64,000 nucleotides of DNA, taken from positions 1 to 64,000 of the forward strand of contig DWYV01000067.1 of assembly GCA_019118525.1 (NCBI GenBank). The letters run 5' to 3'. Positions 5,598 through 44,686 of the stretch are shown one piece after another. The translations under genes were made by a program, and so were the position numbers. How positions within the stretch are numbered: position 1 is the first letter of the stretch; each line of letters begins with the position of its first letter. The notes beneath the pieces were generated by a model. It ran no database searches. It worked only from the letters and a program-made list of their open reading frames with translations, and had not been told where the DNA came from. Origin of the DNA: Candidatus Bariatricus faecipullorum. GTDB taxonomy: Bacteria > Bacillota > Clostridia > Lachnospirales > Lachnospiraceae.

Positions 5598-6077
5598 TTA
5601 CTCCTCCTTATCTGTATCCTCTTCCTGACTGTTCACAATCTTGTCTGCCACTTTCAGCCCGTTCACCAGGATAGCCGGAACATTAAATCCGGCCTCAACG
5701 AAATTCTCAAGAATTGACCGGATTTCATTGATTATTAAACTGGCAAGCACAAACCAGCCAAGCAGTGTAGTTACCCCAAGGTCTATCCCGATTGCCTTTC
5801 CTATTTCTACAAATATCGCCGCAGCGCCGAAAGCTACCATTATCATCAGCCAGTACCCCAGCTTCTTGAGGACTCCCTGGAATCCCTTTACGGAATTTTC
5901 CTTTCCGGCCATACGACTTTTCATCCAGCCCGTAATCCAGTCTGCCACATTGAGCAGCAGAAAGGCGGCAAAAAGCATCCAGTGTTCCCCAAGAACATAA
6001 GAAAGGACGGCCACGACCGTCCCCACAACCGCATTGTATCCATCAATTATCACGTCTGCGTAATTCATTTTCCTCAT
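5598..6077 (-). CDS. Phage holin (holin 4 / toxin secretion family)
   Basis: The 159-aa protein has three or four hydrophobic helices: VVGTVVAVLSYVLG, LFAAFLLLNVADWITGWMKSR, LGYWLMIMVAFGAAAIFVEIG, and LLGWFVLASLIINEIRSILENF. The VADWITGWMKSR motif and charged C-terminus (SQEEDTDKEE) are typical of the family in clostridial phages. It forms membrane holes that release the amidase encoded just downstream. Confidence 0.9.
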   Translation of the reverse strand: MRKMNYADVIIDGYNAVVGTVVAVLSYVLGEHWMLFAAFLLLNVADWITGWMKSRMAGKENSVKGFQGVLKKLGYWLMIMVAFGAAAIFVEIGKAIGIDLGVTTLLGWFVLASLIINEIRSILENFVEAGFNVPAILVNGLKVADKIVNSQEEDTDKEE

Positions 6078-6091
6078 AACCTCACCTTCTC

Positions 6092-6376
6092 CTATGTCAC
6101 ATTCACCTTTACATCATATATCAGGATTTCCTGACCTATGGTGTAGGTATACTCCAGGGTGTACACCGTACCCTTAATCATTGGCTGGATGATTGCCGAC
6201 AGCATAACTTCCGCGTCCCCGCTCTGCCGGATTTCACAGTCTCCACGGGTCTCTTCCTGGCTCCCATTCCGCAGCACGTACTTTGCAGACGCCACCTCGA
6301 ACGGCTCCCGGCAGGAACTGGTGATTTTGATACAGACATATTTCCGTTCTCCCAGCTGAAAATTTACTCTGTCCAT
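6092..6376 (-). CDS. Small phage tail-region protein, unknown
   Basis: AAAGGTGG and ATG 6376 give 94 aa; the longer open frame upstream lies inside the preceding gene. The product is beta-rich (FQLGERKYVCIKI, YTLEYTYTIGQEILIYDVKVNV) and looks like one Ig-like or jelly-roll module. It starts 3 bp after the stop of the previous gene and belongs to the late tail operon. It may be an accessory virion surface protein. Confidence 0.65.
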   Translation of the reverse strand: MDRVNFQLGERKYVCIKITSSCREPFEVASAKYVLRNGSQEETRGDCEIRQSGDAEVMLSAIIQPMIKGTVYTLEYTYTIGQEILIYDVKVNVT

Positions 6377-6378
6377 TT

Positions 6379-6693
6379 TTAAACCGCCACCTTTCTGCAG
6401 CGTCCAAGCTGCGTCCTGTATGCCCCGGGTACCATGTCCACACTGTACATTTCCACAAGACGGACTGTCCAGGGCAGAAGAACCAGACGAGCCTCCGTAT
6501 GCACGTGGGCTTCCCGCACCTGAACGGTACACAATAGGTGTCCTCTCGCTCCGGTACTGCTTTCTGCCCAGATTTCAATATCCTGAATGCCTGGAACCCG
6601 GGGAGCGTATCCTTCCCAGTATCCTGGCTTATCCGGGATGGGCGTGAACTCCACGTTCGTGGAATTCACAGTGCCCCATACACGAACAATCAT
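6379..6693 (-). CDS. Small Ig-like phage protein
   Basis: The 104-aa product begins MIVRVWGTVNSTNVEFTPIPDKPGYWEGYAPRVPG and continues IQDIEIWAESSTGARGHLLCTVQV. That is the strand pattern of a single Ig-like domain often found next to multi-Ig tail proteins. It lies between the Ig-repeat protein and the 94-aa gene. A role as virion adhesin or decoration protein is inferred from context. Confidence 0.6.
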   Translation of the reverse strand: MIVRVWGTVNSTNVEFTPIPDKPGYWEGYAPRVPGIQDIEIWAESSTGARGHLLCTVQVREAHVHTEARLVLLPWTVRLVEMYSVDMVPGAYRTQLGRCRKVAV

Positions 6694-6704: not shown

Positions 6705-7619
6705 CTAGTCTGCCGGGTCGGTCACCTTGAAGGTTATCCGGATGTTGCTGTTAGCGTTGACCGTGGTGGCATCTGCCACAACATCGCTGATAACCGGCGC
6801 CTGGGTATCAACGGTGATATGTCTGGTAACCGTAGTGGTTTTGCCAAGACTGTCTTTTGCAACGACAGTAATCGTATTGGCTCCGTCCGCAAGACCGGTA
6901 AGTTCTTTTGAGAACGCTCCGCCCTCTCCTACGGAAACGGCCGTTCCGTTGATTGTGACCTCTGCCAGGGTAACCGCATCGGAACCGGGAGCGGCAATAC
7001 CAGCTACAGTCACAGTGCTGCTGTTGGTCAGAAGTCCTTCAATCGGGCTGCTCACAGTCAGAGTCGGTGCCGATGTAGAAATAATAAATGTTACTGTATC
7101 CAGGTCGGAAACATTTCCGTCATTATCGCTTACCTGCAGGCTGACGCTGTTGGAGCCATCCGAAAGGTTCGTTGCGTGGTATGTGCAGGTCTTTTTGCCG
7201 TTTTCTCCGTCCTGCCAGGAAAGCCCGGCAGAAACCTGAATATTATTGACCTTGAACACCACGGACGACATATTCAGGCCAGAGCCTCCTGCGTCCTGAA
7301 GTTCCAGTTTGATGTCCTGAGTAGACGCACCGAGTACAGAGCCCTGCGTGGGATTTGTAATGGTTGCTGTCGGTTTTGTCTTTTCCAGGACACGGAAATT
7401 CAGCTCATCGCCGTAAGTAGGGTCTGTGGAAAGCATGACTGTTTCATTCCCGGCGGCGTCCAAAGCGTGGAGCTCTACCGGGAATGTATGGTCCGTCTGC
7501 GACCAGGATGATTCCGCGCCGGCCGGAAACTCAACTTCCCATTCCTGCGTATCATCGTTATATGTGGCATTGTATGTCTGCCCTTTATACTTGGCATATG
7601 CCTGTGTTATTTCACTCAT
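6705..7619 (-). CDS. Multi-domain bacterial Ig-like tail/adhesin protein
   Basis: This 304-aa protein consists of three or four tandem Ig-like repeats. Each has a core such as VELHALDAAGNETVML, VSLQVSDNDGNVSDLDTVTF and ANTITVVAKDSLGKTTTVTRHITV, joined by TxPTxTITxPTxG linkers. There is no signal peptide or LPXTG, which fits a virion component more than a cell-surface protein. Such proteins help phages stick to mucus or polysaccharide. It lies between the tail-tip and lysis genes. Confidence 0.75.
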   Translation of the reverse strand: MSEITQAYAKYKGQTYNATYNDDTQEWEVEFPAGAESSWSQTDHTFPVELHALDAAGNETVMLSTDPTYGDELNFRVLEKTKPTATITNPTQGSVLGASTQDIKLELQDAGGSGLNMSSVVFKVNNIQVSAGLSWQDGENGKKTCTYHATNLSDGSNSVSLQVSDNDGNVSDLDTVTFIISTSAPTLTVSSPIEGLLTNSSTVTVAGIAAPGSDAVTLAEVTINGTAVSVGEGGAFSKELTGLADGANTITVVAKDSLGKTTTVTRHITVDTQAPVISDVVADATTVNANSNIRITFKVTDPAD

Positions 7620-7621
7620 TT

Positions 7622-7765
7622 TTACTTCCTTTCTGATGCAATCGGGTAGTCATGCGGATAATCATAGGGATAATCCACCTCATACCAGAATTCAAACCGG
7701 ATTCTGATTTTCTGGCCGACTTCCAGAGTTGTCTTTTCCGACTGCACATTCTTGATTTCCGCCAT
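7622..7765 (-). CDS. Small phage protein with Tyr-Asp-Tyr-Pro repeats (47 aa)
   Basis: AGGAAGGCAGG precedes ATG 7765. The 47-aa product starts MAEIKNVQSEKTTLEVGQKI and contains a WYEVDYPYDYPHDYP stretch in which a D-Y-P unit recurs three times. It fills the gap between the CBM protein and the Ig-repeat protein and stops 2 bp before the latter. Function is unknown; the position suggests a virion accessory peptide. Confidence 0.6.
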   Translation of the reverse strand: MAEIKNVQSEKTTLEVGQKIRIRFEFWYEVDYPYDYPHDYPIASERK

Positions 7766-7780
7766 GTTCTACCTGCCTTC

Positions 7781-8503
7781 CTATTCTGTCGCCGCTACCT
7801 CAAAATACTGACCAACCAGCGCGGACGGAGCAAAGTACAGAATTACCTTTTCTCCCTCAGCCATTCCGCCACGGTTCATGAGATACACTGTCCCATTTTC
7901 GGAGTAGTATTTCCCCTTTTCGTACTCCATTCCTGCCATCGTTACAGTATCCGGAACCGGAATCGGGTCTTCCAGTGTTCCGGCGCTGGTTCCGGCATCT
8001 ACCGCCGCCCAGAGGCTCGGTGCTACACCAGGCTCCCAGCCCGCCTGAGACGTATGCGCCTGCAGACATTTATACAGCACGTCTTCATGCAGCACCTTGT
8101 AGTCTGCCGCATAGCTTACGCTTTCCCCGCTCCATGCCGGATAGATGGCCTTTACAGTCAGCGCCTGCTCATCTGTCAGCTCCTGTGCCTGGATTCTGGC
8201 CACCGCTACTGCGGCCTGCTGGATTTCTGTCTGAACTTCCGGCAGTGTTTCCGGCTTGTACATAGTCACACCATAAATTTGACCGGTGTAACATTCCGTC
8301 CGGTAAAATGCAGTGTAGCCGTCATATTCCCCGATAATCTGACCGCGTTCTTCCACTACCATATGGGCGGTTCGGCCAGCGTCCTCAAACAGCACCCGGA
8401 GCTGCTCCGGAGTGTTCCCCGTGGTAAGGATATTCAGATAGTCTCCATAGGTCCTTACCTGCTGGATGTTAATTTCCGTAGCATCATTGAAAGTTAATTT
8501 CAT
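7781..8503 (-). CDS. Tail-associated protein with chitin-binding-like module
   Basis: AAAGGACC and ATG 8503 (MKLTFNDATEIN) define 240 aa. The N-terminal ~100 residues resemble clostridial phage structural proteins with a YTAFYRTECYTGQIYGVTMYKPE segment. The middle (about 138-190) is a CBM5/12-like fold: YPAWSGESVSYAADYKVLHEDVLYKCLQAHTSQAGWEPGVAPSLWAAV. Such modules bind glycans. The start codon lies only about 26 bp from the first shufflon site, so transcription of this gene may vary with the state of the inversion region. Confidence 0.78.
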   Translation of the reverse strand: MKLTFNDATEINIQQVRTYGDYLNILTTGNTPEQLRVLFEDAGRTAHMVVEERGQIIGEYDGYTAFYRTECYTGQIYGVTMYKPETLPEVQTEIQQAAVAVARIQAQELTDEQALTVKAIYPAWSGESVSYAADYKVLHEDVLYKCLQAHTSQAGWEPGVAPSLWAAVDAGTSAGTLEDPIPVPDTVTMAGMEYEKGKYYSENGTVYLMNRGGMAEGEKVILYFAPSALVGQYFEVAATE

Positions 8504-8517
8504 TTCTGGTCCTTTCC

Positions 8518-8542
8518 GGAAAAATACAGAGTTAAATAGCAA
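8518..8542 (+). repeat. Shufflon site 1 with extended arm
   Basis: The 14-bp core is at 8529-8542. Eleven further bases on the outer side (8518-8528) are identical to those beside site 2, giving a 25-bp inverted repeat between sites 1 and 2. The site also lies in the leader of the CBM protein gene. Confidence 0.85.
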
Positions 8543-8873
8543 AACAAAAAGTACGATACTGGAAGGGAGCAACGCCTATAGGATAATTTCATCCAATATC
8601 AATACGGAACAAGGTAACGCTGTAATGCGCAGGGTTGGAAATATCCGTATATTTTCGTTCGAATTTACAGCCAAAAGTACAGTTTCATCTGATATAACAC
8701 CGTATGTTTTGAATAACGATGACGCCCCTGCATCACGTGTTGATTTCTGTTTTAAATCGGGGTCATCCATAAAACACGGCTGGATATTTAGCGGGAGCAC
8801 GACCGTTTATACTGATTCCGGGGTAATGACATCAGGACAGGCGTCAAACGGAGAAATAATATATACTGTATGA
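8529..8873 (+). CDS. Silent alternative C-terminal cassette 1
   Basis: In frame from the crossover site this encodes 114 residues, ELNSKTKSTILEGSNAY to NGEIIYTV, then stop. The RVGNIRIFSFEFTAKSTV segment resembles terminal beta domains of tail fibres. It has no ribosome binding site or start of its own, and the upstream part of the open frame is antisense to the CBM gene. It would be expressed only after inversion joins it to the constant region at 11053. Its stop abuts the stop of cassette 2. Confidence 0.75.
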   Translation, partial: ELNSKTKSTILEGSNAYRIISSNINTEQGNAVMRRVGNIRIFSFEFTAKSTVSSDITPYVLNNDDAPASRVDFCFKSGSSIKHGWIFSGSTTVYTDSGVMTSGQASNGEIIYTV

Positions 8874-9209
8874 TTACTTCCATCGTCCTACCACATAGAT
8901 TCCGGATGTAGTATTTAACGTTTCCTGAGTCATGGAATAGCAGGTCAGCCGCATTGATGTTGTCGTGATACCGGTTGCACCTATCCAGTACAGCGAATTT
9001 GTTGCATTCGGCGTTATTTCTACAACCGGGGTATCTATAAATATCACTGGGAATCCGCCTGGAAGGTCAGATGTGGCGAAGTACATACCATTTTTCCACA
9101 GTGTACCAAGATATGTAGTCCACTGAAAACGCCGCCAGCATTCGCATTTGCCGTTAGCATGTTTTATGACGGTCCAGCCATCGATAACTTCTATCTTGCT
9201 ATTTAACTC
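8874..9209 (-). CDS. Silent alternative C-terminal cassette 2
   Basis: From the site at 9209 the minus strand reads ELNSKIEVIDGWTVIKHANG and continues through ECWRRFQWTTYLG to GIYVVGRWK, 111 residues. The DGWTVIKHANGKCECWRR motif is a common start of phage tail-fibre tip domains. The internal ATG at 9086 is not the real start: reading continues open to the crossover site, but no start or ribosome binding site is present. It is silent in the current orientation. Confidence 0.75.
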   Translation of the reverse strand, partial: ELNSKIEVIDGWTVIKHANGKCECWRRFQWTTYLGTLWKNGMYFATSDLPGGFPVIFIDTPVVEITPNATNSLYWIGATGITTTSMRLTCYSMTQETLNTTSGIYVVGRWK

Positions 9210-9220
9210 TGTATTTTTCC
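9196..9220 (-). repeat. Shufflon site 2 with extended arm
   Basis: The core TTGCTATTTAACTC is at 9196-9209, followed by TGTATTTTTCC (9210-9220), which matches the outer flank of site 1 in inverted orientation. Confidence 0.85.
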
Positions 9221-9260
9221 TTTAAATCTAATGTTTTTGGGTTACAGTTTTGGGCATAAC

Positions 9261-9288
9261 AAAAACACCAGACACCTCTGCCTGATGT
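9261..9288 (-). terminator. Intrinsic terminator after the recombinase gene
   Basis: On the minus strand ACATCAGGC pairs with GTCTGGTGT around AGAGGT (9288-9265), then TTTTG. It ends the recombinase transcript and isolates it from cassette 2. The bases just beyond it (9247-9259, GTTTTGGGCATAA) recur next to the terminator at 21976. Confidence 0.65.
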
Positions 9289-9312
9289 AAATAAACCTAT
9301 TTACTTACTTTG

Positions 9313-10305
9313 TTATGCACTCAGATATTTTCCATGGTGGAACTTTACGGATTCCTGCTCTACCGTGCAGTATTCCATAGTGGTTTCCAGCTTGGAATGT
9401 CCCAACAGCTTTGCCACTTCCTGGACCGGCATTCCTCTGTTCAGGGCATTAGTGGCCGCCGTCCTCCTAAACCGGTGCGGGAATGCATGTACCCCGGCCT
9501 TTCGGCCCGTTTTTCGGACAATATCCTCAACTCCGGACTTTGTGAGGCGCCGATGCGGGCTCCGTTCCGCCACAAACAGCGCCGGATTATTGTCCTCCCG
9601 GATTGCCAGGTACTCCAGCAGGTACATGTTTGACCGCTCGTTTAGGTATACTACACGCTCCTTCGCCCCCTTTCCGAACACTATCATATCCCGGGTACCG
9701 AAACGCACGTCTGAAATGTTCAATGCCGCCAGTTCCGACACCCGGACAGCTGTAGAATATAGGAATTCCAGCATCGCCTTATCCCTCAGTGTCCTGCAGT
9801 TACGCAGCATTTTCTCCCGCTCCGTATCGCTGTACGGTTTTCGGATTTTCTTCTCCACCTTTATCTGCTCCACCTGAACCATGGGATTTTTTCGCACCCG
9901 GTCACGGTCCCGAAGCCAGCCGAAGAAGCTGCTGAATACCGCCCGGATGTTCTTCAGAGTCTGATTGCTTATCCCTCTGGCCCGTTTATACGCCCGCATG
10001 TATCCGGATATGTCTCCCGGCCGAATTTTATCCACAGCCTTGTTCACGTAGGACAACAGCCGGTTCAGCTCATAACGGTACCGCTTCAGTGTGGCCGCTG
10101 ATTTTCCCTCCAGCGCCTTGGCCATCAGATATGATTCCAAATCATCCCGCCAGCTGTCGTCCAGCACCATGATTTCCTGATTTTCCGGTTCTACCCGGTA
10201 CCCGCACAGTACATTCTGCAGAACCGTTTTCAGCTCACTCAGCTGGCTGTCTTCCAGGATTTCCTGCATGCCATACAGAACCTGGTTAATCATCCGTTCC
10301 TTCAT
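9313..10305 (-). CDS. Tyrosine recombinase, predicted shufflon invertase
   Basis: This 330-aa XerC/D-like recombinase has an N-terminal SAM-like core-binding domain (about 50-140) and a C-terminal catalytic domain. The catalytic residues are Arg188 in TAVRVSEL, Lys in FGKGAKERVV (212-216), His277 and Arg280 in PHRFRRT, His303 in LLGHSK and Tyr312 in MEYCTV. AAAGGAGA precedes ATG 10305. It lies between two cassette pairs inside the tail module, far from attL and attR, and the phage has a separate integrase. Its predicted job is therefore inversion at the GAGTTAAATAGCAA sites rather than integration. Confidence 0.88.
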   Translation of the reverse strand: MKERMINQVLYGMQEILEDSQLSELKTVLQNVLCGYRVEPENQEIMVLDDSWRDDLESYLMAKALEGKSAATLKRYRYELNRLLSYVNKAVDKIRPGDISGYMRAYKRARGISNQTLKNIRAVFSSFFGWLRDRDRVRKNPMVQVEQIKVEKKIRKPYSDTEREKMLRNCRTLRDKAMLEFLYSTAVRVSELAALNISDVRFGTRDMIVFGKGAKERVVYLNERSNMYLLEYLAIREDNNPALFVAERSPHRRLTKSGVEDIVRKTGRKAGVHAFPHRFRRTAATNALNRGMPVQEVAKLLGHSKLETTMEYCTVEQESVKFHHGKYLSA

Positions 10306-10327
10306 GTTCTCTTCTCCTTTTTGCTTT

Positions 10328-10355
10328 ATTATAGCGGCAAAAGAAGAGAGTTAAA
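10328..10355 (-). promoter_or_regulatory. Putative recombinase promoter overlapping shufflon site 3
   Basis: A perfect TATAAT (minus strand, 10333-10328) lies 22 bp upstream of the recombinase ATG. The best -35, TTTAAC or TTAACT (within 10355-10349), lies inside the crossover core at 15-16 bp spacing. The -35 is weak, so this is a candidate only. Confidence 0.4.
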
Positions 10356-10361
10356 TAGCAA
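10348..10361 (+). repeat. Shufflon site 3
   Basis: GAGTTAAATAGCAA, identical to the other three cores. It starts cassette 3 on the plus strand and borders the recombinase leader. Confidence 0.85.
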
Positions 10362-10704
10362 TATTGAGACCGGAGGAGATCCAAATGAATATAGATACTA
10401 TGTCCGGTTCAAAAAGGAGAAACTACAGATCTGCTATGGCTCGTTCTGGGCAACTATGGCACTTAGCCAGAATGGTTCCGGTTACACCGGGGTATCAAAC
10501 AGCATTCGAAATGGCAGTTTCGCGAAAGAATTTTCCACTGTCCGGTCACTGATCATATCACGAAATAGCGGTGACTGGGCAACAATTCTGTCGAAAAGTG
10601 CCAATAGCGAGGAAATCACCCAGGTTGTATTGGGCTATTGGGGCGGATACACGTCCAGAGAGTTTGCATTTGATTATGTGGCCATAGGAACATACACTGT
10701 TTGA
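10348..10704 (+). CDS. Silent alternative C-terminal cassette 3
   Basis: Reading from the site gives 118 residues, ELNSNIETGGDPNEYRYYV to FDYVAIGTYTV. It is unrelated to cassettes 1, 2 and 4 apart from the first residues and a shared YTV end with cassette 1. A nominal start at 10321 has no ribosome binding site and lies in the recombinase leader. Inverting 10348-11053 would join it to the constant region. It ends one base from the stop of the expressed cassette. Confidence 0.75.
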   Translation, partial: ELNSNIETGGDPNEYRYYVRFKKEKLQICYGSFWATMALSQNGSGYTGVSNSIRNGSFAKEFSTVRSLIISRNSGDWATILSKSANSEEITQVVLGYWGGYTSREFAFDYVAIGTYTV

Positions 10705-10705
10705 T

Positions 10706-11542
10706 TTATTTTATTTTATAGATTTCATATGCCACATTTGCCGCGCTTGGGGTAACATAGGCCAATCGAACAGAACCGCTGTTTTCCACCTGAATTATTG
10801 CAGACACGCGGCTTGTGAAATTCATCGGGCCATTGTAAATGTCTGCTATCGGCTCAATGCCGGATACACCAGTATTTAGATAGGCAGTAAGATAATGCCG
10901 TCTATTTGATGCTGCAGACCGTAGCTGCAGATTCAGGGAAAGCATATATATCCCTTTCTGCAGCTGAATGGTTTTCCAGTCCGTCTGCGATGTCACTACC
11001 TGGGATATCGACTCCTCGCTATCGATTTTGGAAAACAAATTGCTATTTAACTCAGCAAGGCTCCCGTTTAAAACCTCCAAAAGTTTCACTACTTCCGTAA
11101 CCTGAATCCCGTCCAGATGCACTTCAAACAGCGGGCAGTCGTCCGTCAGGTCTCCGTCCTGCATGTTTCCCTCCGTATATGCTGGCGCCACCGGAGAATC
11201 CGCCGCAGGAGTTCCCTGAATTACTTCCCAGGTCATAGTTTCTATTTCCGTCTCCGGATTTTTGGTGTACCTGGCAACCACTAAGTCAATTCTCTTCATC
11301 CCCTGGCTGCCATTGCCTATGTTTACCTCATCGTAGGTATTCTGTTTTACTTCACTGATGCTCCCGTGATGGCACAGCATTCCACTGCGGATTCTCAGCA
11401 CATTATTAGACTGCAACTCCGGCTCCAGCAGTTCTCCTTTTCCCAGGATGTAACTGCCTTCCCCTATAATCATTTCGTATATTGCTCTATGCTGCGTACT
11501 CGTTACATGCGGCGTTTTCGCCGTTCCCGTAATCAGTTCCAT
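10706..11542 (-). CDS. Phage tail receptor-binding protein, phase-variable C-terminus
   Basis: AGGAGA and ATG 11542 start a 278-aa tail protein. Residues 1-163 (MELITGTAKTPHVTSTQHRA to LNGSLA) match a conserved clostridial tail-tip N-terminus with LRIRSGMLCHHG and MKRIDLVVARY. The crossover site encodes ELNSN (about 164-168). The last 115 residues (to VAYEIYKIK) are the currently expressed variable domain. It directly follows the Gp37-like hub gene, so it is probably the tip fibre that recognises host surface glycans. Swapping the C-terminus should change host range. Confidence 0.85.
   Translation of the reverse strand: MELITGTAKTPHVTSTQHRAIYEMIIGEGSYILGKGELLEPELQSNNVLRIRSGMLCHHGSISEVKQNTYDEVNIGNGSQGMKRIDLVVARYTKNPETEIETMTWEVIQGTPAADSPVAPAYTEGNMQDGDLTDDCPLFEVHLDGIQVTEVVKLLEVLNGSLAELNSNLFSKIDSEESISQVVTSQTDWKTIQLQKGIYMLSLNLQLRSAASNRRHYLTAYLNTGVSGIEPIADIYNGPMNFTSRVSAIIQVENSGSVRLAYVTPSAANVAYEIYKIK
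11040..11053 (-). repeat. Shufflon site 4, expression site
   Basis: The core lies in frame inside the receptor-binding protein gene and marks the border between constant and variable parts. Its outer flank (AGCAAGG) differs from that of the other sites. Confidence 0.85.
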
Positions 11543-12544
11543 CTAATCTTCTCCTTCCACCTGATATTCCACGCTGACATTTCCCTGGTCATCCGTGGTG
11601 TAAATGATATTTGATACCGGTTTTGCCATATACACTCCCGTCAGGTAATCCCGGCCGCCTATAATGTCGCCAATATTGACATCAAGATTCAGGGCGGACG
11701 TGTTCATGCCAAATTCCTGCCGGTTCATTATCTGAACAAATTCTTCCCGTGCCTTCTCCTCGACTTCTTCTGTTTCCGTGGAAGTGTTCTCATAAACATA
11801 GCATCTTTCTTCGATTCCGGTATAATACTGGGTTTTCTGAATGCTGCCATCCGGCCAGGCATATAAATGAATTACATTTCTGTCAGCCAGCTCGCCCTTT
11901 CCGGCCACAATCATGTGATTGTAACCGTTCCGGATGTCATTAAGCTGGAAGTCCAGACCACTGTCCTGGGAAAGCTCTATCTCACTGGAATAATCCACTA
12001 TCGGAACCGATTCTATCAGGACATATCCCAGCTCCCGGCTTTCTTCCACATAAGTTATCTGGATTTTGTACCCCTGGCTTTTCAGCAGCTTTTCAATGCC
12101 GGAAAGCATATCCGTGTACCGTTCAAACTGATAATTGTTCACATAAACCCCGGTGCTGACCGAAGAAACCACAAAGAGCCCGTCAAACTCCGGTTCAATC
12201 AGGCTCTTCAGGATACTGTTCAGTTCTCCACTCACTATCCGGTAATCCTGGCCGGATGGCGGCTCTATCACTTTCCCGTTCAGCATGCCTCTCCAGGTAA
12301 TGCCGCACACTTTAATGTAGTCCAGCGCCGTGTCTGTGTACATCCGCCCTATCCGGCCACCGATTTCAGTACCGGGCTGAAAAATCAGACCTCCATACTC
12401 AAAATCAGCGTCCCAGGCGTTCCGGTGAACAGATACTTCAAAATCTCTCGTCCCGTTCAGGTCGATATCCACTCCGACATTCAGGAGGGATTTTATCTCC
12501 TTCCCGTCTTTTCCTGCCAGAATCAGCGCTGTTTTGCTATCCAT
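11543..12544 (-). CDS. Gp37-like tail hub / tail-associated protein
   Basis: The 333-aa protein resembles the siphovirus ReqiPepy6 Gp37-like family found after Dit in many Gram-positive phages. Visible features are the N-terminal LNVGVDIDLNGTRDFEVSVHRNAWDADF, a GGLIFQPGTEIGGRI segment, and a C-terminal NLDVNIGDIIGGRDYLTGVYMAKPVSNIIYTTDD beta region. It probably forms the tail tip hub that holds the receptor-binding protein encoded next. Its start overlaps the Dit gene by 22 bp. Confidence 0.82.
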   Translation of the reverse strand: MDSKTALILAGKDGKEIKSLLNVGVDIDLNGTRDFEVSVHRNAWDADFEYGGLIFQPGTEIGGRIGRMYTDTALDYIKVCGITWRGMLNGKVIEPPSGQDYRIVSGELNSILKSLIEPEFDGLFVVSSVSTGVYVNNYQFERYTDMLSGIEKLLKSQGYKIQITYVEESRELGYVLIESVPIVDYSSEIELSQDSGLDFQLNDIRNGYNHMIVAGKGELADRNVIHLYAWPDGSIQKTQYYTGIEERCYVYENTSTETEEVEEKAREEFVQIMNRQEFGMNTSALNLDVNIGDIIGGRDYLTGVYMAKPVSNIIYTTDDQGNVSVEYQVEGED

Positions 12545-13356
12545 AACGGCTCATTCCTTTCTACATATGCTGTGATGTCAAAACCAAAAGTACCGGTCCA
12601 GTTCACATAGACTGTGCCGGGACCTATCGGGTCAAACACGCTGTCCTCCATTCTTCTGTTATTATACAGATTTGCCGTGGTTCCATTGGACAGGTATTTT
12701 GTTATCGTATGGTCACGACTGTCCAGAATCAGATATTCATTACTCTCCAGTGTTGTGTATATCTGATACGGATGCCCGTCAATCAGAATCCTCGGGTCTG
12801 TTACGGGGCCATATACTATCATTGTAAACGGACAGCTTCCAACATGGTCTATATACCAGTCCTGGGAGCCGATATCCGTAACCGTATAATTAAATGGATA
12901 ATCAAACGGGTAGTCCAGAAAATCACCGATATCTGCGCCGGACATATCTTTTTTGTAAAAATGCTCGGACACTTCACGTATCCAGAACGGGCGGTCAGAA
13001 ACCACCGTGGCCGTCACCACTGTGTAAATCCCGGCTTCCCATTCCTCTTTGTCCACACCCTTTATGTAGCAGGACAGATATTCTCCATTTACATAAAGCT
13101 TTCCCGGAGTATTATCCAGCACATCCACAGCTACTATACTTTCAAAATCATTCATCCTTGCAGGGAACTCAGACTCCGTACAGAACACATCGAATTTCAG
13201 TTTTTTCTCAAATATTTTCCTCTGAAATCCATATATTTTACTGCTGTATGTGATTTCCTCCCAGGAGTAGCTGAAAAAATCGGCCGTAATCAGCCGGTAT
13301 GGATATTTCATCAGGTTGATTTCTTCCCCTCTGCTATTTCTGTAGTAGCAAATCAT
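12523..13356 (-). CDS. Distal tail protein (Dit-like)
   Basis: The 277-aa product fits the phage tail protein family of SPP1 gp19.1/Dit. The N-terminus MICYYRNSRGEEINLMKYPYRL and the FDVFCTESEFPARMNDFESIV segment form the usual belt domain. SCYIKGVDKEEWEAGIYTVVTATVVSDRPFWI and the C-terminal FNYTVTDIGSQDWYIDHVGSCPF follow as a galectin-like region. It caps the tail tube and anchors the hub. It lies between tape measure and hub genes, the canonical place. Confidence 0.85.
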   Translation of the reverse strand: MICYYRNSRGEEINLMKYPYRLITADFFSYSWEEITYSSKIYGFQRKIFEKKLKFDVFCTESEFPARMNDFESIVAVDVLDNTPGKLYVNGEYLSCYIKGVDKEEWEAGIYTVVTATVVSDRPFWIREVSEHFYKKDMSGADIGDFLDYPFDYPFNYTVTDIGSQDWYIDHVGSCPFTMIVYGPVTDPRILIDGHPYQIYTTLESNEYLILDSRDHTITKYLSNGTTANLYNNRRMEDSVFDPIGPGTVYVNWTGTFGFDITAYVERNEPLWIAKQR

Positions 13357-43531: not shown

Positions 43532-44686
43532 ATGGCTAAACGAAAGAAACATCCACGGCTCCCGAACGGCTACGGAAGCATACGCTGGCTGGGAAAAGGT
43601 CGCCGCAATCCCTACGGGGTCTATCCGCCAGTAACAGAGTTCACGGAAGACGGAGTGGCAGTCCAGAAGAAGGCGCTGTGCTATGTCGATGACTGGATGG
43701 TAGGTTTCGCAGTCCTCACTGCATACAAGGCCGGAACCTGGAAACCGGGAATGGAGTCCGAATTTAAAAAGCTGACGCTGGAAGACGGTACCGGAACATC
43801 TACACTGGCAGGACGCATTCTGGCCGACTACAACCGCTACGCTCATCCGGACAAGGGAAACGGGGAGAAGAGGCCCACATTTGCAGAAGTGTATGAGCTC
43901 TTTTTTGACTGGAAGTACAATGGAAAAAAGAGGTATTCCACTGCTTCCAGAAACAGCACTCAGGCAGCCTTTAAGAACTGCTCAGCGCTTCATGAAAGAA
44001 TATATGCAAATATTTCCTACCAGGAAATGCAGGATATTCTGGACAACTGCCCATTAAAACATTCTTCTGTTGAGCTGATGAATTCTCTTCTAAAACAAAT
44101 GGCCCGGTATGCCATGGCCGAGGGAATTGTCAAAGATATGCGAAGCGTAGAGCTGCTCAAAATCAATATTGAGGATGATGATGAGCACGGTATCCCATTT
44201 ACGAATGACGACCTTAAAAATTTCTGGGCAGATTCCCAAAACGATGTAGCAGAAGTTATCCTGCTGATGTGTTATTCTGGTTTTCGCATAGGTGAGCTGT
44301 ATGTGGTAAATGTAGACCTGAAAAATAAGTGCATCCGTGGCGGTTTGAAAACACGTACAAGCAAGACGCGAATCGTACCTATACATTCCTCCGTTCTTCC
44401 AATAGTAAAGCGCAGAATTCACAAATATGGATGTCTGATGCCTATTCCACGTGACAAGTTCCGAAAAGAAATGTATGAGTATCTGGAATGCCGCAATATG
44501 GAAAAACACACACCACACGACTGCAGACACACCTTTTCCAGATTATGTGAAGATTATGGGGTACGTGAAAATGACCGCAAGAGAATGATGGGACATAAAA
44601 TCGGAGACATTACAAACGATGTTTACGGCCATAGGGAAGTTGAGCAGCTTCGAGAGGAAATTGAAAAAATCCGAGTGCCTGATTAA
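43532..44686 (+). CDS. int: Phage integrase, tyrosine recombinase
   Basis: AAGGAGATG precedes ATG 43532. The 384-aa integrase has an N-terminal arm-binding region, a SAM-like core-binding domain (about 110-205) and a catalytic domain with Arg252 (SGFRIGEL), Lys278 (RTSKTR), His329/Arg332 (HDCRHTF), His355 (MMGHK) and Tyr365 (DVYGH). It ends 150 bp before attR, the usual place, and integrates the phage at the 17-bp core. Confidence 0.94.
   Translation: MAKRKKHPRLPNGYGSIRWLGKGRRNPYGVYPPVTEFTEDGVAVQKKALCYVDDWMVGFAVLTAYKAGTWKPGMESEFKKLTLEDGTGTSTLAGRILADYNRYAHPDKGNGEKRPTFAEVYELFFDWKYNGKKRYSTASRNSTQAAFKNCSALHERIYANISYQEMQDILDNCPLKHSSVELMNSLLKQMARYAMAEGIVKDMRSVELLKINIEDDDEHGIPFTNDDLKNFWADSQNDVAEVILLMCYSGFRIGELYVVNVDLKNKCIRGGLKTRTSKTRIVPIHSSVLPIVKRRIHKYGCLMPIPRDKFRKEMYEYLECRNMEKHTPHDCRHTFSRLCEDYGVRENDRKRMMGHKIGDITNDVYGHREVEQLREEIEKIRVPD

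What the first reader, a model, noticed from the sequence alone, without database searches (positions are those of the whole stretch)
8518..11053. Phage tail-fibre shufflon with four C-terminal cassettes and a dedicated tyrosine recombinase
Seen: four identical 14-bp sites in alternating orientation, each followed in the same reading frame by a different C-terminus of 111-118 aa. Two cassette pairs are tail-to-tail with 0-1 bp between stops, and a tyrosine recombinase gene with a full catalytic set lies between the pairs. The site lies inside the receptor-binding protein gene at residue 164. Known: tyrosine-recombinase shufflons (Rci) vary pilus tips on IncI plasmids, and phages Mu and P1 use serine invertases for tail fibres. 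Inference: this prophage switches host receptor by inverting cassettes, with all four reachable by one or two inversions.
Basis: partly seen in the sequence, partly recalled or inferred. Interest (0 to 1): 0.95.

Follow-up and report, generated by a model that had tools for sequence, protein, structure and literature searches.

The report
Four-way tail-tip switch in gut phages
A prophage in a likely gut bacterium carries four interchangeable endings for a predicted receptor-binding tail protein, and a recombinase gene lying between the two pairs of endings likely flips them at four short repeated DNA sites; relatives of each silent ending are found joined to nearly the same tail protein in public sequence data, so the phage would be able to change which host surface it grips.

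Summary
Four exact GAGTTAAATAGCAA sites alternate in orientation and are the only copies found in the genome. Each opens, in one frame, a different 111-118 aa ending; a tyrosine recombinase lies between two tail-to-tail pairs; the 163-aa constant part follows Dit and a minor tail protein.

Best reading: an inversion system for a phage receptor-binding protein. Twelve listed proteins carry the constant part at 99% identity or more (one is the window's own) and diverge at the site; their endings include C4, relatives of C1, C2 and C3, and four other families. Of 32 related loci tested, 28 share the layout and 22 also the frame (controls: 5 and 0 of 49). In 12 pairs of loci the same cassette sits in different slots while outer flanks stay with the slot, placing the crossover within 9 bp (AAATAGCAA), perhaps its last 6. 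Two prophages of one genome differ by such an inversion.

The kind is known: Rin shufflons of Bifidobacterium and Eggerthella prophages. This is a new variant: different recombinase lineage (related to hsdS-linked enzymes), different site, mirror-image layout, in phages of Lachnospiraceae. Catalysis by this recombinase and receptor switching are inferred.

The parts
11054..11542 (-). Constant N-terminal part (163 aa) of the likely receptor-binding protein
   Evidence: relatives in 17 of 299 family genomes at E 1e-10 or better
11040..11053 (-). Site s4 (active), codons 164-168 of the gene
10706..11053 (-). Cassette C4, expressed ending in this assembly (115 aa)
10348..10704 (+). Cassette C3, silent ending (118 aa); relative fused to the constant part in P0132 (78%)
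10348..10361 (+). Site s3
10314..10333 (-). Possible recombinase start signals: TATAAT at 10328-10333 and AAAGGAG at 10314-10320
   Evidence: read by eye; a consensus scan found no complete promoter
9313..10305 (-). Tyrosine recombinase, 330 aa, predicted invertase
9265..9288 (-). Terminator-like hairpin after the recombinase
   Evidence: 2 found, 1.2 expected in the scanned stretch; z -2.31
9196..9209 (-). Site s2
8874..9209 (-). Cassette C2, silent ending (111 aa); relative fused to the constant part in P0122 (88%)
8529..8873 (+). Cassette C1, silent ending (114 aa); relative fused to the constant part in P0133 (96.5%)
8529..8542 (+). Site s1

Best explanation
The locus has the anatomy of a four-cassette shufflon in which a tyrosine recombinase is predicted to invert DNA between oppositely oriented 14-bp sites and so would change the C-terminal end of the prophage's likely receptor-binding protein. 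Shown here: the sites, frames, cassettes and recombinase; the same constant part joined to relatives of the three silent endings in other sequences; and, in related loci, cassettes inverted or moved between slots with junctions at the site. Inferred: that this recombinase catalyses the exchange; that the crossover lies within AAATAGCAA in the window as it does in relatives; that s3 x s4 swaps C4 for C3, s1 x s4 brings in C1, and C2 needs s1 x s2 as well; and that the endings bind different host surface structures. Within loci only one arm and the core of the site are shared; by analogy with Rci and its sfx sites this asymmetry would favour inversion over deletion. Recombination between sites of like orientation would always remove the recombinase and so end switching.
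For: Sites exact and unique, cassettes in one frame. Of 120 listed proteins, 12 share the constant part at 99% or more (one is the window's own); the ten that do not carry C4 are 99.3% alike over residues 1-163, invariant at ELNS and 8% alike after it; their endings include relatives of C1, C2 and C3. Layout in 28 of 32 tested loci, with a shared frame in 22, against 5 and 0 of 49 controls. DNA blocks inverted or relocated between sites: L097/L098 in one genome (98.8%, 563 bp), L062/L103 (92.0%, 740 bp), L103/L116 (99.3%, 725 bp), L105/L117 (86.7%, 601 bp). In 21 cassette pairs from 12 pairs of loci the right side follows the cassette and the left flank the slot. A separate integrase-family gene at 43532-44686.
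Against: No reads of this strain, so switching in it is not observed; the contigs behind the twelve proteins could not be read, and three (P0123, the window's own, P0128, P0133) show no source. Recombinase orientation is 21:4 rather than even. Six of 28 loci with the layout have endings that are not all open in one frame. Two fairly close relatives, L135 and L140, show one cassette pair only. No complete promoter was found before the recombinase. The model of the tail protein is poor (mean pLDDT 48.7), and receptor binding was not tested.
Confidence: 0.9

Rival explanations
1. A cassette store reshuffled mainly between phages by homologous recombination or module exchange; the sites are only short anchors and the recombinase is not needed.
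For: Some relocations need two inversions or an outside donor (L103/L116), and four ending families joined to the constant part are absent from the window.
Against: Junctions fall in 9 bp or fewer of identity in most of the relocated pairs, in-place inversion is seen with colinear neighbours, and a recombinase sits between the pairs in 28 of 32 tested loci.
Confidence: 0.07
2. The recombinase is the prophage integrase and the repeats are remnants of attachment sites or of integration of other elements.
For: It belongs to the phage integrase family.
Against: Another integrase-family gene lies at 43532-44686, far from the tail genes; the four sites each open a reading frame, and the layout recurs in relatives.
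Confidence: 0.02
3. Inversion is real but switches something other than receptor choice, such as tail assembly, antigenicity or an enzymatic trait of the particle.
For: No binding data; none of the four endings has a Pfam match above its cut-off; a nearby tail gene carries a CBM_5_12 domain and another has Ig-like domains, so other adhesion parts exist.
Against: Position after Dit and minor tail protein; constant part homologous to one in bifidophage PMBT6; published interpretation of the analogous Rin locus as a receptor-binding switch (PMC6109161).
Confidence: 0.15

Closest known systems
Rin shufflon of Bifidobacterium dnaJ2 prophages (PMC6109161: abstract, passages and section 8 read) and of Eggerthella lenta clade-1 prophages (PMC8778435: passages read)
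   Same: Tyrosine recombinase; constant receptor-binding N-terminus of similar length (168 against 163 residues) with variable endings of about 100 residues; short asymmetric repeat before each ending. A phage with rix-like repeats, PMBT6, has a constant part 31.6% identical to the window's.
   Different: In the paper the recombinase flanks a row of cassettes; here it lies between two mirror-image pairs. Site sequence differs (TTCCCTAACCC there). The PMBT6 recombinase shares only a 37-residue stretch with the window's.
Rci/sfx shufflon of plasmid R64 (PMC11852207: abstract and introduction read)
   Same: Tyrosine recombinase, several sites, swapped C-termini of an adhesin, conserved core and one arm with the other arm variable.
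   Different: Pilus adhesin on a plasmid; seven sites; no sequence comparison with Rci was made here.
Type I restriction hsdS inversion systems with a tyrosine recombinase (found here in L075 and L076; mentioned in passages of PMC11892184)
   Same: Related recombinases (about 40% identical), placed between inverted cassettes at short sites.
   Different: The target is the DNA specificity subunit of the host, not a phage tail protein.
Serine-invertase tail-fibre switches of phages Mu, P1 and p15B (Gin, Cin, Min; as described in PMC6109161)
   Same: Inversion swaps tail-fibre ends and is tied to host range.
   Different: Serine recombinases; the window's enzyme is in the Phage_integrase family.

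Membership tests
Rin-type phage shufflon | Tyrosine recombinase beside a tail receptor-binding gene | tested here: met
Rin-type phage shufflon | Constant N-terminus with alternative endings, each preceded by a short repeat | tested here: met
   constant part 31.6% identical to that of PMBT6
Rin-type phage shufflon | rix site TTCCCTAACCC | tested here: not met
   the site is GAGTTAAATAGCAA
Rin-type phage shufflon | Recombinase at the edge of tandem cassettes | tested here: not met
   it lies between two tail-to-tail pairs; same in 28 of 32 tested loci
Rin-type phage shufflon | Recombinase of the Rin lineage | tested here: inconclusive
   only the PMBT6 recombinase was compared: 37-residue match, E 5e-6; the Rin protein of Bb423phi1 was not at hand
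Rin-type phage shufflon | Armless, XerD-like recombinase | tested here: inconclusive
   SAM-like and catalytic domains match; residues 1-58 match no Pfam domain; nearest solved structures are XerA/XerC/XerD
Rci/sfx shufflon | Asymmetric site: core and one arm conserved, other arm variable | tested here: met
   within-locus conservation in 20 loci
Rci/sfx shufflon | Homology to Rci | not tested
   Rci was not compared
hsdS inversion systems | Cassettes encode the specificity subunit beside hsdM/hsdR | tested here: not met
   no hsd match at the window, Methylase_S in L075 and L076
Serine-invertase tail-fibre switches (Gin, Cin, Min) | Serine recombinase | tested here: not met
   Phage_integrase family
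Diversity-generating retroelement | Reverse transcriptase and template repeat | not tested
   not sought; discrete cassettes give no reason for one

The most novel reading that the evidence does not exclude
A portable, self-contained switch module is spread through prophages of Lachnospiraceae: one recombinase lineage, two mirror-image cassette pairs and four sites, plugged into unrelated tail-fibre and receptor-binding genes and fed from a large shared pool of tip cassettes. Its mirror layout is a fail-safe, since any deletion between like-oriented sites throws out the recombinase itself. Related enzymes and sites switch the hosts' type I restriction specificity, so phage attachment and host restriction are shuffled by related machinery in the same bacterial family.
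Probability: 0.5. Interest if true: 0.82.

Novelty: new variant of a known kind. Interest (0 to 1): 0.7.

Why it matters
A phage that keeps four receptor-binding tips and would switch among them could help explain how prophages persist as host surfaces change, and why such phages may be hard to grow on a single strain. The comparisons place the natural crossover within 9 bp and supply a set of related recombinases with diverged sites, so site recognition, bias against deletion and the use of a central recombinase become directly testable. The kinship with hsdS-linked recombinases asks how often one switch design was recruited on both sides of the phage-host contest.

Tried and rejected
Rejected: chance repeats; the recombinase as the prophage's only integrase; a serine-invertase system; exchange by homology alone (short junctions).

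Led nowhere or weak: viral-contig scans with the window recombinase or the constant part alone gave 2 relatives each, so an alignment was used (32 loci). Scans for C1 and C3 found no relative, for C2 one 16-residue match. DNA search of 8400-12600 in phage records: no match. Genus search: of 8 genomes only the window's own has the recombinase at E 1e-60 or better. Structure of the native protein: mean pLDDT 48.7, residues 171-278 mostly 56-78; no PDB match at E 0.001 or better; nine viral-library matches at 0.001 or better but with query TM-scores of 0.12-0.30, not used as evidence. PDB sequence search: recombinase resembles XerA/XerC/XerD; nothing credible for the tail protein. Rfam: none. Consensus scan: no complete promoter, terminator-like sites near chance.

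Counting notes. One search examined 49 loci, four of which repeat others (L129, L133, L138, L141). 32 gave the full layout; one of these, L005, failed. Of the other 17, I judge 11 cut by contig ends; L135, L139, L140, L068, L069 and L071 are not. One search took 32 of the 49, leaving out the repeats, other truncated loci, L135, L139 and L140, so its 28 of 32 is not independent. Its controls are those of L143-L212 with at least 12,000 bases, the recombinase being assumed at 7001-7990, which is wrong for a few of them. One search placed the constant gene (open frame of 100 aa or more) in 25 of the 28 loci with the layout; the truncated L065 has the opposite orientation and is not counted. One search compared 12 chosen pairs. 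One search used 20 and 22 chosen loci.

Prior-print searches: searches showed no title or abstract start, and no passage that I read, describing such a system in Clostridia phages; the library holds open-licence papers only. Milman et al. 2023 on gene-altering inversions is not held; I saw only its entry in a reference list. PMC5903667, PMC11323893, PMC11892184 and PMC11868660 were seen as passages.

Full report
What is there. The four 14-bp repeats are exact, and they are the only copies in the window (4 found, 0.5 expected at up to 2 mismatches) and in the 2.55-Mb genome (up to 1 mismatch). Each opens, in the same frame, an ending of 111-118 residues beginning ELNS; the two pairs of endings meet tail to tail with 0 and 1 bp between stops. 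One ending, C4, is joined to a 163-residue constant part. Between the pairs lies a 330-residue tyrosine recombinase with core-binding and catalytic domains and conserved catalytic columns. Gene order (Dit, minor tail protein, this gene, two further tail-like genes, holin, endolysin) makes it a likely tail-tip or receptor-binding protein. An integrase-family gene at 43532-44686 is the likely prophage integrase.

Do the endings exchange? Three lines of evidence say yes. First, a search scored on the constant part alone listed the best 120 of 4979 proteins; 12 share it at 99% identity or more, one being the window's own. The ten that do not carry C4 are 99.3% alike over residues 1-163, invariant at ELNS, and 8% alike after it. 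Endings in the twelve include relatives of C1 (P0133, 96.5%), C2 (P0122, 88%) and C3 (P0132, 78%), C4 itself (P0123, the window's own, and P0128), and four families absent from the window. So a relative of each ending that is silent here is found in the expressed position elsewhere. The contigs behind these proteins could not be read, and three of the twelve show no source.

Second, related loci differ by inversion or relocation of cassettes. Two prophages of one genome (L097, L098) differ by a 563-bp inverted segment, 98.8% identical, with colinear neighbours. L062 and L103 differ by an inverted 740-bp pair, L105 and L117 by an inverted 601-bp pair. In L103 and L116 a 725-bp pair, 99.3% identical, has changed arm and orientation. 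The recombinases of L097 and L098 are about 39% identical to the window's; those of the others 63-65%.

Third, junctions map the crossover. Of 22 chosen loci, 12 pairs of loci hold the same cassette in different slots (21 cassette pairs, 19 of them in the window's clade). There the sequence right of the site follows the cassette, while outer left flanks are only 10-60% alike. In 9 of the 21, identity stops exactly at the first base of AAATAGCAA; one pair (L109/L110) stops three bases further in, which would leave TAGCAA, but a later mutation could explain that one. In 27 same-slot comparisons with different cassettes, identity runs from the left flank to at least the last base of the core. Across 20 loci of the clade the four sites agree over the 9-bp core (one column at 80%), mostly agree over about nine bases to its left (some columns down to 5% and 30%), and agree in only 5-60% of loci to its right. 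One arm and the core are thus shared and the other arm is not, as described for the Rci sites of R64 (PMC11852207, introduction).

How widespread. In 299 genomes of the bacterial family, 51 have a recombinase relative at E 1e-30 or better and 17 have the constant part at 1e-10; the 51 include hsdS-linked enzymes. Of 49 loci first examined, 32 showed the four-site layout. Of 32 taken to the frame test, 28 have the layout and 22 have all four endings open in one frame, against 5 and 0 of 49 control loci around distant relatives. The constant genes differ: ten of 25 match the window's constant part, the window included; others do not, some having collagen-like repeats, one being a fibre with a Gp53-like C-terminal domain (L061). 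The tree of 65 recombinases puts the window in a 21-row clade (100/100) without hsd genes nearby; 16 rows elsewhere lie near hsdM, hsdR or hsdS, and L075 is a complete type I system with Methylase_S cassettes beside its recombinase. Of the ten closest titled genome records, seven name Lachnospiraceae; that the window's own genome belongs there is an inference, from genomes of its family that share contig lengths with such records.

How it would work. Enumeration gives 16 states. s3 x s4 swaps C4 for C3; s1 x s4 brings C1 to the constant part and turns the recombinase round; C2 needs two steps; s2 x s3 turns only the recombinase. Both like-oriented pairs enclose the recombinase, so a deletion would end switching. 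The recombinase may be its own transcription unit: TATAAT and AAAGGAG lie just inside s3, an AGGAG-like signal precedes 25 of 28 relatives by eye, and a hairpin follows it; but a consensus scan found no full promoter and rated hairpins near chance. If all inversions were equally free, its orientation should be random; it is co-directional with the constant gene in 21 of 25 loci. I read this as fast toggling within the pair next to the constant gene and slower exchange between pairs, though selection or shared ancestry could do the same.

Against the reading. No reads from this strain were at hand. Two fairly close relatives (L135, 69%, and L140, 50%) show one pair only. In six of 28 loci some endings are not open in the shared frame, partly because silent sites carry a stop in frame. 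Cassette scans of viral contigs were nearly empty, and of 8 genomes of the genus only the window's own has the recombinase. Exchange between phages probably also occurs, since some relocations need two inversions or an outside donor. Receptor choice is inferred from position and from known systems.

Comparison. Tyrosine-recombinase tail-protein shufflons were first reported as Rin in Bifidobacterium prophages, with inversions seen between prophages and in virion reads (PMC6109161, section 8), then in Eggerthella (PMC8778435, passages). Bifidobacterium phage PMBT6 has rix-like repeats, a recombinase and a constant part 31.6% identical to the window's, but that recombinase shares only a 37-residue stretch with the window's. 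The window works like Rin with a different site, layout and, as far as tested, recombinase lineage, so I call it a new variant of a known kind and do not file it as Rin.

Noticed in passing
7781-8503 (-): Tail-region gene with a CBM_5_12 carbohydrate-binding domain, next to the shufflon; perhaps a second adhesion protein.
   Followed up: no
6705-7619 (-): Ig-like and Glucodextran_B domains; the same protein family (phrog_11157) stands near the shufflon of L098.
   Followed up: no
43532-44686 (+): Second integrase-family gene (Pfam 2.3e-8), likely the prophage integrase.
   Followed up: partly
L062, L104, L108, L116 silent sites: Silent sites read TAATAAAATAGCAA where the active site reads GAATTAAATAGCAA, placing a stop in frame just before the core; it may keep silent endings from being translated.
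   Followed up: partly
L135:6446-6947; L140:5881-6594: Relatives of the recombinase with only one mirror-image cassette pair, possibly a simpler or reduced form of the module.
   Followed up: partly
L072-L079, L084, L086, L087, L089, L090, L093, L094, L096: Recombinase relatives beside type I restriction genes; several have hsdS cassettes with sites around AAACRATAATTTAG.
   Followed up: partly
L099 (G138), around 6064-6552: A relative of the constant part (64%) with no related recombinase in the 13-kb stretch, perhaps a fixed receptor-binding gene.
   Followed up: no
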